36,094 nt of DNA from a bacterium. Lineage in GTDB: Bacteria; Armatimonadota; Zipacnadia; Zipacnadales; Zipacnadaceae. A program made the translations under genes and the position numbers. Location: contig JAUVXR010000027.1 in NCBI GenBank assembly GCA_030603495.1, positions 1 through 36,094 of the forward strand, in the 5' to 3' direction. Positions 18,630 through 22,680 of this stretch are shown piece after piece. A model generated the notes under the pieces. The model saw only the letters and a list, made by a program, of their open reading frames with translations, did no database searches and was not told where the DNA came from. Each line of letters opens with the position of its first letter. Position 1 is the first letter of the stretch.

Positions 18630-19865
18630 TCACGGCTCGAGTACCTGAGCGAAGAGGGTGGCCAGGGCCGCGGCGTTGCGATTGGCGTCGAAATACTTGA
18701 CCACTTTTTGTCGCCCGAGCATACTGACCCGGCTGCGTACCTCCTCATCATACAGCGCTATCTCCAGCTTCTCGGCCAGGTCGCGCGGGTCGCCCGGCGT
18801 GGCCAGCAGACCGGTTCTCTGGTGCTCAATCAACTCGGGAATCGCCGAGATGTTGCTGGCGACTGTGGGGATACCCATGGCCAGGGCCTCAAGCAAGACA
18901 TTCGGCAAACCGTCGCGGTCACCGTCGGCGGCAACTACCGAAGCGAGCGCAAAGACCTGCGCCTCGGCATAGAGGCGACGCACCTCACGTTGGGGCAGCG
19001 CACCGAGAAACTCCACGCGGTCCTGAAGCTGGAGCCCAGCCGCCATCCTAACCAGATCCTCGTGCAGAGGCCCCTCACCAACGATGATGATGCGGAAATC
19101 AGCACCGCGCGACTGGAGTATGCTCGCCGCCTGGAGCAGATACGGGTAGCCCTTTTTCTCCACCAGCCGTCCCACCGACAGTATGATGGGCGGCTTGTTC
19201 GCGAGTAGACCCACTGGTCTGAACTCGCTTAAGTCCAGACCGTGATAAATGAGGTGGAGCTTCCCCTCGGCGACCAAGCGGTGACGCTTGAGCAGTCGGC
19301 GCCGGCCGTACTCGGTGCAGACCGTCACAAACTCGGCCTCCGCCATCTTCAGGCTCAGCGCAGTCGCTTGGTAGGTGAAGATGTCGCAGGCGTGGACAGA
19401 GAAACTGTAGCCGCGGCCCGTAATCTCGGCCAGCAGCCAGGCTATAGTCGTGGGCACATTGCCGAAGTGGGCGTGGATGTGCCGTACCCGGCGGCCAAGC
19501 CGCACCGCGAAGTAGCCGGCGCGCCATAGACTGCCGAACATCTCGCGGGTCTCCTGCGGCTGGCGGAGACTGCGCATCACGGCGAACCGCAGCGCCGAGA
19601 AGTAGCCGCCTGGGTATTGCAGCAGGGCCAGCAGCTGGACAATAGCAGCACGCACTGACAGCGGTCGCGGTGCGTAGATCGTCCGCTGCGCGAAGGCCCT
19701 GGCGCCCTCGTGGATGACCTCACCTACCGGCTTCCGAAGAGCGAGGGGTATGATAACGAACCCCCGTCTCTCCAGGGCCAGCATTTCCCGCAGGATAAAG
19801 GTCTCCGTGACCGAGGGAAACTCGGCTAGCACGTACGCAACTCGCTCGGAACCGGCCCTATCCAA
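18630..19865 (-). CDS. GT4-family glycosyltransferase
   Basis: A 411-residue GT-B glycosyltransferase, probably for exopolysaccharide or cell-surface glycans. The N-terminal Rossmann half has VAYVLAEFPSVTETFILREM and HIHAHFGNVPTTIAWLL, and FSVHACDIF, all common in colanic-acid-type (WcaL/AmsK-like) enzymes. The C-terminal half has SVGRLVEKKGYPYLLQA, RIIIVGEGPLHEDL and DGLPNVLLEALAMGIPTVASNISAIPEL, where the two Glu residues 8 positions apart form the EX7E donor-binding motif. The start is a TTG overlapping the end of a preceding glycosyltransferase remnant; AAGGAGGT lies about 11 bases upstream. The gene is separated by about 150 bases from the GT-C gene. Confidence 0.88.
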   Translation of the reverse strand: MDRAGSERVAYVLAEFPSVTETFILREMLALERRGFVIIPLALRKPVGEVIHEGARAFAQRTIYAPRPLSVRAAIVQLLALLQYPGGYFSALRFAVMRSLRQPQETREMFGSLWRAGYFAVRLGRRVRHIHAHFGNVPTTIAWLLAEITGRGYSFSVHACDIFTYQATALSLKMAEAEFVTVCTEYGRRRLLKRHRLVAEGKLHLIYHGLDLSEFRPVGLLANKPPIILSVGRLVEKKGYPYLLQAASILQSRGADFRIIIVGEGPLHEDLVRMAAGLQLQDRVEFLGALPQREVRRLYAEAQVFALASVVAADGDRDGLPNVLLEALAMGIPTVASNISAIPELIEHQRTGLLATPGDPRDLAEKLEIALYDEEVRSRVSMLGRQKVVKYFDANRNAAALATLFAQVLEP

Positions 19866-19995
19866 GCTCAGTCAGTACCTCCTTGTAAAGGCCAACAACC
19901 TTCTGAGCTGCTGCAGCCCAGGTGAAGCCCGCCGCATGTGCCCCGCCCTGGATAATCAGCGCGCCGGGGCCTGCAACCACCGGCAGCACTGTACC
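19858..19995 (-). pseudogene. C-terminal remnant of another glycosyltransferase
   Basis: Immediately upstream of the GT4 gene, minus-strand translation gives VLPVVAGPGALIIQGGAHAA and then GFTWAAAAQKVVGLYKEVL before a TAG at 19860-19858. The FTWxxAAxxxxxLYxEVL ending is the usual C-terminus of GT4 enzymes, and VVAGPGAL resembles the region after the EX7E motif. The residues that should separate the two parts are missing and a stop (TAG) lies upstream in frame, so this is a deletion remnant. Its stop codon overlaps the TTG start of the intact GT4 gene, and the ribosome site of that gene lies inside the remnant. Confidence 0.55.
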
Positions 19996-20163
19996 CTATG
20001 GAGCTCGGACTTTCCTCACCGGCTACAAGAGCCGGCGCGACCACCCGACCTGCTCTCCAGTGATATCATACCCGATGGCTGAATTAGTGTAAATGAACGA
20101 AGGAGTATGGCTCGGGACAGTAACTTCTTGTTACACGACGGCCCGCCGTTGTTGTAAACTTTG

Positions 20164-21681
20164 CTATTCTTCAATCTGCTTCCTTCCGAATTCTAATGCA
20201 TTAGCCACCAAGCTCTCAGCAACACGTCGGCTCTCCTTATAATTGTCACGAATAACCTTTTGGTCCATCTGCAGCACCTCTCGAACCCTAGACAGATCGG
20301 TGCCAGGGAAGATCCTTTCCCATTGCTCCGCTAGTGAATCAAGAGCCATACTCGTGCCAGCAAGACGGACACCGCTATTAGCCCACATGACATTCCTCAG
20401 ACATATGGAGATAGCACGCCGGGGGTCAATTCTTGACGTGTTATTGCCGAGTCGTTCTTCAAACTCAACTAAACCTTTCCTGTCCTCGATCAGTACTTTG
20501 TACCTTTCCCTCGAAGAGGACAGTGCTCGCGGCAGCTTCAGGATAGATGCTATGTGTCTCTCACCAACTTGGTAAACCATATAGTAGTGAGCAAATATTG
20601 AACAACCCAATAACGGGTGCTTCTCGTAGAAGTCTGCTCCTCTCTCATGAACTTCAACGTCGACTGTAATTTTCCCTTGGGGTCTGAAATGATAGAAATA
20701 GTGAGGGTCATCCCCCCAGACAAGTTCTACGTTGTCAAGATGGAACAATTGGAGTAGCTTCTCCTTTACCACATCGCGCTCCTCGCGTTCAGTAACTACC
20801 ATCAAATCAAGGTCCGCCTCATGTTCCTGATAGTCAAACATGCTCTGCAATCCACTCAAATGATCTGCCATTCCTCCGAATACACCTACGTGGAGAATCT
20901 GTGGCGTATTCTCACCCAGCGTAATTAGGCCATTCAAAATGCCTTGAAGCTGTGGCTTGAGGAAATCGCTGCGAGGAGCCTTTTTGTACTGCCCAAAATC
21001 TTTGACGGCTTGAATATTGCCGGATGCGATAAGGCTTTCGAAGTAGCGAGACAGGATCTCGAAAACATTGCGGCTGCGAAACTCAATTGCAAAGTTTAGG
21101 ACTGGTCCTTCGTCTTCTGAATCAATAGCTACAAGCCTGTCTAAACCCAGAATACATCTATATTCATTCTCACTCTTATAAAGAAGCAAGTTTGCTCGCG
21201 GCAACACTGCCCAAAGGGCACCTCCTACGAAGATAGGCCGTCTCACTACATAAACGGTTGCGTCGACTTCTTTTTCTTTCTTCAATTCTTCACAAGTATT
21301 CTCTAACCATTGCTCCTCTAAACGTTTGTCGGCGACCAAAAGGAATCTTCGAAATCTCAAATGTCGTTTAACTCTCCTCAATCGGTGAACGGCATAGTCT
21401 TCCGATGCAGATAGTTCCCCTGGCTGTATATGAGTTGCAATGATCTCGCCTCCATTCTCGGCTGCAAGTTCGTAGATGTGCTCGGCGGCAGCAGAAGCTG
21501 AATCTCGGGTAACGTGAACCTTCGGAATATGCGAGAGCCAGTCGCGAGCAAATACTATCCAAAGAACCACTGCAGCAACAACTACGAGGAAATAGGCCCA
21601 ATAAACAGAGCGTCCAAAGAATATGCCACTTGCTAAGATAATTAGTCCAATTGCTGAGGCAATCACGTCTGATTTACTCAT
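20164..21681 (-). CDS. Membrane-anchored protein with nucleotidyltransferase-like domain (unrecognised family)
   Basis: A 505-residue protein I do not recognise. Two adjacent membrane helices occupy residues 6-45. Residues 55-225 alternate strands and helices (GGEIIATHIQPGELS, FRRFLLVADKRLEEQWLE, VDATVYVVRRPIFVGGAL, LVAIDSEDEG), resembling the PLD-like fold of regulatory domains but without HKD motifs. Residues 262-350 look like a polymerase-beta-type nucleotidyltransferase: HVGVFGG, EADLDLMVV (Asp290, Asp292) and ITVDVEVHE (Asp341), a plausible metal-binding triad, though GG replaces the usual GS. The C-terminal 130 residues are helical and charged. Its ATG overlaps the stop of a 55-codon P-loop gene (ATGA), so the two are translationally coupled. 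Base composition looks more AT-rich than that of its neighbours, suggesting transfer. Confidence 0.75.
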   Translation of the reverse strand: MSKSDVIASAIGLIILASGIFFGRSVYWAYFLVVVAAVVLWIVFARDWLSHIPKVHVTRDSASAAAEHIYELAAENGGEIIATHIQPGELSASEDYAVHRLRRVKRHLRFRRFLLVADKRLEEQWLENTCEELKKEKEVDATVYVVRRPIFVGGALWAVLPRANLLLYKSENEYRCILGLDRLVAIDSEDEGPVLNFAIEFRSRNVFEILSRYFESLIASGNIQAVKDFGQYKKAPRSDFLKPQLQGILNGLITLGENTPQILHVGVFGGMADHLSGLQSMFDYQEHEADLDLMVVTEREERDVVKEKLLQLFHLDNVELVWGDDPHYFYHFRPQGKITVDVEVHERGADFYEKHPLLGCSIFAHYYMVYQVGERHIASILKLPRALSSSRERYKVLIEDRKGLVEFEERLGNNTSRIDPRRAISICLRNVMWANSGVRLAGTSMALDSLAEQWERIFPGTDLSRVREVLQMDQKVIRDNYKESRRVAESLVANALEFGRKQIEE

Positions 21682-21845
21682 TTTGCCTCCTCGGCGAACT
21701 TGCGCAGCAGGAAGCTCTTTCCGATTCCCGCCGGCCCGGTCACCAGCAGTACACCGGGCGAGGGGTCTGCTACGAAGTCGCGTAGCGCCTGGAGTTCGTC
21801 TTCACGGCCTACGAAGTATTCAAGTTCGTCGTCCGTTGACGGCAT
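21678..21845 (-). CDS. 55-residue P-loop stub (STAND/AAA-type NTPase N-terminus)
   Basis: A short frame from ATG 21845 encodes YFVGREDELQALRDF, then LLVTGPAGIGKSFLLRKFAEE, and stops. This is the beginning of a STAND/NACHT-type ATPase (the VGREDEL lead-in and a perfect Walker A GPAGIGKS), with everything after the P-loop helix missing. A stop codon lies just upstream in frame, so it does not extend further. The TGA is embedded in ATGA with the start of the next gene. Either this is the truncated head of a large NTPase whose body was replaced by the membrane gene, or it is a retained mini-protein. No clear ribosome site precedes it. Codons look GC-rich, unlike the following gene. Confidence 0.6.
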   Translation of the reverse strand: MPSTDDELEYFVGREDELQALRDFVADPSPGVLLVTGPAGIGKSFLLRKFAEEAK

Positions 21846-21984
21846 AGGTCAAATGGCCCCCCTGCCAACAGCAGATCAGAACTTCGAGAACACACTATCA
21901 CACAGCGTTTCCCGGTCGAGGTCGGGACTATCCAGGGCGAGTTGTCCGCGCTGGAGCGGCCTCTCGGAGCCTCATCGTCCCGCT

Positions 21985-22680
21985 TCATCGCAGGGGACGG
22001 TCAGCCGTCTCCCCTGCCGGTAGCGTTCTGGTGCCGCCCTCTTCCGTTTGCGCAGCAGTCGGCAAGAAACACATCCACTCGGGGTGTTCGGTATCACGCT
22101 GGATCTGCAAGACGTCACTGCGTAGGTCCAGCCAATCAATCGGGTCCAGCGAGTTCTGATGGCCATCGTACCACCGGACGGTCACGACGTTGGCGTGATA
22201 CGTTTCATCCACCAACATCGGAGTATCGGTAAGGCGCCGATTATGCTGCGCACCGGTCAGCAGGGACGCATCCAAGTAGTAATAGGATGTTGGCGCGGCG
22301 GTCCGGTCAGCCTTGCACTTGAAGGGGTCAACATCATCTTCGAGCGGCCCGAGGTGCCTCCTGAGCGCCTGGTGCCACCTTCTCGGGGTAGGATAGGCGT
22401 CATAATCAATGTTGTACAGCTCCATGGCGACACCCAGTTGGTTGAGATTCGCCAAACATGTCGTAACATATGCGGCATCCTTAGCCTGCAGGTATCTGGG
22501 CCAAAGCAGGGCAGCCACGATGGAGATGATAGAAATCACCACCAGAAACTCCACCAGGTGACTGTAGGTACGCAGCGCGTTGAGTACCTCTTGTGTCGCC
22601 GTGGCTAACCGACCAAAGCGGGTTGCTTGGGCCGCCTCGATTTCTCGCTGGATCTGGCTTTCGGGTCGCCGATCAAGCAT
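21985..22680 (-). CDS. Pseudopilin-like protein with altered prepilin leader
   Basis: A 231-residue protein built like the type II secretion/DUF1559-style pseudopilins common in Planctomycetota and Armatimonadota. After a 39-residue leader comes SHLVEFLVVISIISIVAALLWPRYLQAKDAAYVTTCLANLNQLGVAMELY, then DAYPTP and a globular C-terminal domain with KCKADRT, YYYLDASLL and VRWYDGHQN. The usual GFTLIELLVVI is changed: Tyr39 stands where the cleavage Gly should be, and Ser-His replace Phe-Thr, although Glu44 at +5 is kept. Processing by a prepilin peptidase is therefore doubtful. It could be an uncleaved membrane protein or a gene early in decay. The start is ATG 22680. It lies downstream of the groEL terminator on the same strand. 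Confidence 0.75.
   Translation of the reverse strand: MLDRRPESQIQREIEAAQATRFGRLATATQEVLNALRTYSHLVEFLVVISIISIVAALLWPRYLQAKDAAYVTTCLANLNQLGVAMELYNIDYDAYPTPRRWHQALRRHLGPLEDDVDPFKCKADRTAAPTSYYYLDASLLTGAQHNRRLTDTPMLVDETYHANVVTVRWYDGHQNSLDPIDWLDLRSDVLQIQRDTEHPEWMCFLPTAAQTEEGGTRTLPAGETADRPLR

What the first reader, a model, noticed from the sequence alone, without database searches (positions are those of the whole stretch)
20164..21845. P-loop stub translationally coupled to a membrane-anchored nucleotidyltransferase-like protein
A 55-codon frame ends right after a perfect Walker A of a STAND-type NTPase and overlaps (ATGA) a 505-residue protein with two membrane helices, a PLD-like alpha/beta region and a DxD...D nucleotidyltransferase-like region. 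Coupling suggests selection for joint production. Either a novel membrane sensor/NTase with a mini-ATPase partner, or a recombination scar that fused a foreign gene behind a truncated NTPase. The membrane gene seems AT-richer than its surroundings.
Basis: partly seen in the sequence, partly recalled or inferred. Interest (0 to 1): 0.66.

Follow-up and report, generated by a model that had tools for sequence, protein, structure and literature searches.

The report
Prophage-cargo scar beside orphan membrane nucleotidyltransferase gene

Summary
Both reading frames are real: a 55-codon frame (21845-21678, minus strand) overlaps by ATGA a 505-codon frame (21681-20164). The two-protein 'system' is not supported. 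The stub is the first 55 codons of a 730-aa STAND-type ATPase with TPR repeats, which a same-genus genome keeps whole between a prophage end and a duplicated 5' piece of rnpB (RNase P RNA). The other end of the window's patch, 19981-20100, is also an rnpB promoter plus about 75-80 nt of RNA, although this genome's intact rnpB lies on another contig. Between them sits the 505-aa gene at 46.5% GC (flanks about 61%), clearly foreign. In four related loci the slot between prophage end and rnpB (or an rnpB piece) holds a different gene each time: STAND-TPR ATPase, AIPR (abortive-infection) protein, membrane protein, GHKL ATPase. The patch is best read as relocated, partly deleted cargo of such a defence-type slot. 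The stub lacks Walker B and cannot be an ATPase; the ATGA overlap can arise from the junction alone. The 505-aa protein has two N-terminal membrane helices and all three nucleotidyltransferase motif elements, but no family model, homologue or confident fold confirms this. Likely function (inferred): membrane-bound NTase effector of phage defence.

The parts
21678..21845 (-). 55-codon stub: 5' end of a STAND-type AAA_16/TPR ATPase gene, cut after Walker A
   Evidence: AAA_16 E 1.3e-11; 21688-21828 is 90% identical in DNA to the 5' end of the 730-aa ATPase gene at G006:C29:4511-2319
20164..21681 (-). 505-aa orphan membrane protein, nucleotidyltransferase-like, AT-rich
   Evidence: open frame; GC 0.465, GC3 0.458; no Pfam, NCBIfam, PHROG or PADLOC family
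21538..21675 (-). two predicted membrane helices (residues 3-48 of the 505-aa protein)
   Evidence: hydropathy; helices 3-21 and 26-49 in a low-confidence model
20644..20880 (-). nucleotidyltransferase-like motifs: FGG 268-270, D290xD292, D341
   Evidence: pattern search with controls; motif definition in PMC4125220
19981..20100 (-). truncated rnpB: promoter (TTTACA-17-TATGAT, 20093-20065) and first about 75-80 nt of RNase P RNA
   Evidence: 92% identical to L035:715-834 and 2149-2246; Rfam RF00010 E 1.9e-6 from 20056; promoter scan
19868..19980 (-). C-terminal remnant of a glycosyltransferase gene that is complete in G001:C67
   Evidence: frame translation, complete 374-aa gene in L021; also decayed in G005
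21876..21971 (-). C-terminal remnant of an E1 alpha dehydrogenase gene
   Evidence: 21889-21931 is 91% identical to the end of the gene at G001:C67:9774-10742, Pfam E1_dh
18630..19865 (-). flanking host glycosyltransferase gene
   Evidence: Glycos_transf_1 E 8.8e-38; found in all 21 genomes of one search
21985..22680 (-). flanking pseudopilin-like host gene
   Evidence: weak T2SSG match; aligned to G005 and G004, where it lies close to the glycosyltransferase

Best explanation
The stub/long-gene pair is a recombination scar, not a two-component system. A patch of about 1.87 kb (19981-21845) lies between a decayed glycosyltransferase gene and a pseudopilin-like gene. It derives from the cargo slot that, in sister species, lies between the end of a prophage and an attachment-site-like 5' duplication of rnpB. 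That slot carries one variable gene, often of a phage-defence type. Here the resident STAND-TPR ATPase was cut after codon 55 and a foreign AT-rich gene for a 505-aa protein was joined to it; the prophage part was lost and the patch now lies away from the intact rnpB. Shown: homology of both ends of the patch to one prophage-side locus, truncation of the ATPase, absence of its remainder from the rest of this genome, foreign composition of the long gene. Inferred: that the patch came as prophage cargo, and that the 505-aa protein works as a membrane-anchored nucleotidyltransferase (N-terminal hairpin in the membrane; cytosolic alpha/beta part; NTase domain with D290, D292, D341; C-terminal helices), most plausibly a defence or abortive-infection effector that transfers a nucleotide to an RNA, a protein or a small molecule. 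The stub cannot hydrolyse ATP; at most its translation feeds ribosomes to the downstream start codon.
For: Stub is 90% identical in DNA over 141 bp to the 5' end of a complete 730-aa ATPase gene in G006, while neighbouring window genes are 64-71% identical to that genome. The patch's other end (rnpB piece) is 92% identical to two places in the same G006 contig, in the same orientation, and is rnpB by Rfam. The rest of the ATPase is not found in this genome. GC island exactly over the long gene. G005 has the two flanking genes close together without the patch. Prophage - variable gene - rnpB order in G006 and G004, with an rnpB piece; same unit in G001; GHKL gene between prophage and rnpB in G000. 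AIPR and STAND-TPR genes in that slot, both kinds listed in known defence hotspots (PMC9122126). NTase motifs.
Against: No phage gene remains in the window, so the prophage origin of the patch rests on two short segments. The ATPase 5' segment is known from one other genome only. No integrase has been tied to the rnpB crossover point. The 505-aa protein has no homologue, and no usable fold model could be made; its enzyme class rests on motifs, whose loose form occurs in 6-8% of control sequences.
Confidence: 0.72

Rival explanations
1. A functional bicistronic unit: the P-loop mini-protein and the membrane NTase are selected to be made together and act as a sensor/effector pair.
For: ATGA overlap with a GAGGAGG ribosome-binding-like site 6-7 bases upstream of the ATG. 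Walker A is intact. Stub against the G006 gene: dN/dS about 0.35 on 15 changes.
Against: No Walker B or any later ATPase element. No other searched genome has the stub alone. The overlap follows when any gene beginning ATG-A is joined in that frame, which by rough reckoning is about one junction in ten. Composition of the two genes differs sharply. The low dN/dS may reflect only the time when the gene was whole.
Confidence: 0.06
2. Conserved ends with exchangeable middle: the ATPase 5' segment and the rnpB 5' segment are the constant ends of a cassette whose middle is swapped, so that foreign genes are placed behind a ready start site.
For: Window and G006 share both ends (90% and 92% identity) with unrelated middles. 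rnpB pieces at four loci stop within about 12 nt of each other, next to different genes.
Against: The ATPase 5' segment occurs only in G006 and the window; G004 and G001 have phage-end sequence at that place instead. A single replacement event explains two loci.
Confidence: 0.12
3. Assembly chimera: unrelated reads joined in a draft metagenome assembly.
For: The genome is a 62-contig draft; rnpB pieces are repeats on which an assembler can switch; the composition change is abrupt.
Against: The flanking order (glycosyltransferase remnant, pilin-like gene) matches G005 on both sides of the patch. The window's rnpB piece differs from this genome's own rnpB (84 of 100 bases identical) and is nearer to that of other species (90-91), so it is not a copy of the local repeat. 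Several short remnants in a row are hard to create by mis-assembly.
Confidence: 0.08

Closest known systems
Defence-gene hotspots of P2-like phages and P4-like satellites (PMC9122126)
   Same: One variable slot at a fixed place of a phage-type element, filled with single defence-type genes, including STAND-TPR and AIPR proteins
   Different: Here the slot lies between a prophage end and rnpB in an uncultured genus; the window copy has lost the prophage and lies away from the intact rnpB; no defence activity has been tested
STAND NTPases with TPR repeats (AAA_16/TPR)
   Same: The stub carries the AAA_16 N-terminus and Walker A of such a protein
   Different: Everything after residue 55 (Walker B, rest of the NTPase, TPR) is absent in the window
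[quoted passage not shown]
   Same: hG[GS], [DE]h[DE]h and h[DE]h elements in the right order in the 505-aa protein
   Different: Two membrane helices and an unassigned alpha/beta region come first; about 19 residues between GG and the first D; no match to any curated family

Membership tests
Functional STAND/AAA ATPase (stub) | Walker A (P-loop) | tested here: met
   GPAGIGKS, AAA_16 profile positions 2-48 of 167
Functional STAND/AAA ATPase (stub) | Walker B, remaining NTPase domain and sensor repeats | tested here: not met
   The frame ends 11 residues after Walker A; the remainder is not found elsewhere in the genome
Nucleotidyltransferase superfamily (505-aa protein) | Motifs hG[GS], [DE]h[DE]h, h[DE]h in order | tested here: met
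   FGG 268-270, D290-L-D292-L, V-D341-V; definition from PMC4125220
Nucleotidyltransferase superfamily (505-aa protein) | Match to a curated NTase family profile | tested here: not met
   No NTase family in Pfam, NCBIfam, PHROGs or PADLOC
Nucleotidyltransferase superfamily (505-aa protein) | NTase fold (mixed sheet with flanking helices) | tested here: inconclusive
   Models of pLDDT 36-38, no significant PDB match
Nucleotidyltransferase superfamily (505-aa protein) | Nucleotide transfer activity | not testable with these tools
   Needs a biochemical assay
Prophage defence-hotspot cargo | Position between phage genes and an attachment site | tested here: inconclusive
   Met for the related genes in G006 and G004, partly in G001; in the window only the rnpB piece and the ATPase 5' end remain, no phage gene
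Prophage defence-hotspot cargo | Variable content at a constant place, with defence-type genes | tested here: met
   Four different genes at four loci, among them AIPR (E 1.1e-23) and a STAND-TPR ATPase
Prophage defence-hotspot cargo | Anti-phage activity | not testable with these tools
   Needs a plating assay
PLD-like domain (residues about 55-235) | PLD fold or profile match | tested here: inconclusive
   No PLD profile matched; sub-threshold Usp match E 0.006 only

The most novel reading that the evidence does not exclude
A family of mobile cargo units inserts at about nucleotide 80-95 of rnpB, each bringing its own rnpB promoter and 5' end so that RNase P RNA is restored, and shuttles single defence-type genes, among them an unknown class of membrane-anchored nucleotidyltransferase, within this bacterial genus.
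Probability: 0.25. Interest if true: 0.65.

Novelty: new member of a known kind. Interest (0 to 1): 0.36.

Why it matters
It turns an apparent two-gene sensor into a recombination scar with a traceable origin, and points to a place worth looking at: the slot beside rnpB in this genus, where sister species carry different defence-type genes next to a prophage. The 505-aa protein is a candidate for an undescribed membrane NTase family. If rnpB 5' ends are attachment sites, such pieces can be used to trace cargo that has left the prophage.

Tried and rejected
Homologues of the 505-aa protein were sought in all 291 held genomes of the phylum, 398 Pseudomonadota, 400 genomes of the phylum of a Chloroflexi genome, 23 others, genome contigs, viral contigs (whole protein and three sub-regions), plasmids and phages. 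The three weak genome hits were read and rejected as chance: DnaE (L002), a DUF418-like membrane protein (L201), a transposase (L202); the weak phage hits (E 0.5-0.9, polynucleotide kinase) likewise. Structure prediction from the single sequence failed and its fold search is uninformative. Viral contigs hold no exact match to the rnpB core. Relatives of the STAND ATPase and of the terminase were not found in viral contigs. A link to the short membrane protein at G004:C35:29016 was tested and is not significant. A mini-ATPase partner was rejected for lack of Walker B and of any second stub. Papers on rnpB as an integration site: three candidates read, none relevant.

Full report
What is there. 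On the minus strand a 55-codon frame (21845-21678) overlaps by ATGA a 505-codon frame (21681-20164). The window is one whole contig (C28) of a 2.67-Mb, 62-contig draft genome. The stub matches Pfam AAA_16 positions 2-48 of 167 (E 1.3e-11). The long gene is an island of 46.5% GC, GC3 0.458, in surroundings of about 61% GC, and has the worst codon fit of 16 genes compared.

What the stub is. In 40 relatives only one place matches the stub closely: G006:C29, 75% identical over 53 residues inside a long frame. That gene encodes a 730-aa protein with AAA_16 at its start and TPR repeats at its end, a STAND-type layout. DNA identity is 90% over 141 bp (21688-21828), while neighbouring genes of the window are 64-71% identical to the same genome. 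Homology stops at 21688, 7 bases before the ATG of the long gene. The rest of the ATPase is not found elsewhere in this genome. The stub has no Walker B. Its stop codon is made by the first bases of the new gene (ATG A..), so the overlap needs no selection (inference from the sequence). Between stub and G006 gene there are 7 synonymous and 8 non-synonymous changes, dN/dS about 0.35, which decides nothing.

The other end of the patch. Window 19981-20100 is about 92% identical to two places in the same G006 contig. Rfam shows that it is the 5' end of class A RNase P RNA, with its promoter. The genome's intact rnpB is on contig C20, and the window piece is less like it (84 of 100 bases) than like rnpB of G006 and G004 (90-91 of 100). 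In G005 the glycosyltransferase remnant and the pilin-like gene lie close together (ends about 0.4 kb apart) without the patch. The patch is flanked by a glycosyltransferase C-terminal remnant (complete in G001) and by the last codons of an E1 alpha dehydrogenase gene. The neighbourhood is therefore a mosaic of remnants.

Where such pieces normally sit. In G006:C29 and G004:C35 a prophage (terminase, portal and so on) ends about 10-20 bp before one variable gene, which is followed by an rnpB 5' piece, one more gene, and the intact rnpB. G001:C183 has phage-end sequence at the contig edge, then an AIPR gene, an rnpB piece and a phosphodiesterase gene, with no rnpB in the 14 kb read. In G000:C20 the prophage lies next to rnpB with a GHKL gene between, in the other orientation and without an rnpB piece. 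The variable genes are a STAND-TPR ATPase, an 845-aa membrane protein, an AIPR protein and a GHKL ATPase. STAND-TPR and AIPR proteins are both described in the defence hotspot of P4-like satellites (PMC9122126). The rnpB pieces leave the rnpB sequence at GTGCTG (window), GTGCTGGCG (G006) and about 9 nt further on (G004/G001), all within about 12 nt. This suggests one preferred crossover point; no integrase was linked to it. An XerC/D-like recombinase gene lies beside rnpB in G000:C20 but may be a host gene.

What the long protein is. It has two hydrophobic N-terminal helices and three NTase motif elements (FGG 268-270; D290, D292; D341), in the order that marks the superfamily (PMC4125220). 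The loose pattern occurs in 6-8% of controls; the strict one is rare (2 of 5000 shuffles) but was written after the fact. No curated model recognises the protein, more than 1,100 searched genomes hold no homologue, and single-sequence models are of too low confidence to use. The PLD-like reading has no support beyond a sub-threshold Usp match.

Most likely working. The 505-aa protein is held in the membrane by its N-terminal hairpin, with the enzyme part in the cytosol. By its motifs it transfers a nucleotide; by the company that this kind of slot keeps it is a defence or abortive-infection effector. Both statements are inferences; I put NTase activity at about 0.55 and a defence role at about 0.4. 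The stub is debris that may still lead ribosomes to the start codon.

Novelty. A scar of prophage-linked cargo is a known kind of thing. The orphan protein and the use of rnpB 5' ends as borders are the parts that could be new; neither is proven here. A search of open papers found no report of rnpB used in this way, which is weak evidence because most subscription papers are not held.

Noticed in passing
G000:C20 about 58-86 kb (L079, L203); G004:C35 about 4-33 kb (L078, L205); G006:C29 from 4.5 kb (L035): A syntenic prophage (terminase, portal, a glycosyltransferase-like gene between portal and capsid genes, tail genes, amidase-like gene) lies next to rnpB in three species of the genus, 76-81% identical in DNA between G000 and the others and 90-91% between G006 and G004; it could be a domesticated element.
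   Followed up: partly
L035:2145-2262, L078:1375-1506, L077:1678-1864, window 19981-20100: Extra copies of the rnpB promoter plus 5' end lie directly upstream of other genes (lipoprotein, phosphodiesterase, glycosyltransferase), so they might serve as borrowed promoters.
   Followed up: partly
window 21876-21971: C-terminal remnant of a dehydrogenase E1 alpha gene right upstream of the stub, with a stop codon just before it.
   Followed up: partly
G000:C20:51726-53606 (L079:2727-4607): 626-aa protein with a sub-threshold phosphoribosyltransferase match and a PADLOC match to OloB (E 1.8e-8), near rnpB and the XerC/D-like gene: possible further defence genes on the other side of rnpB.
   Followed up: no
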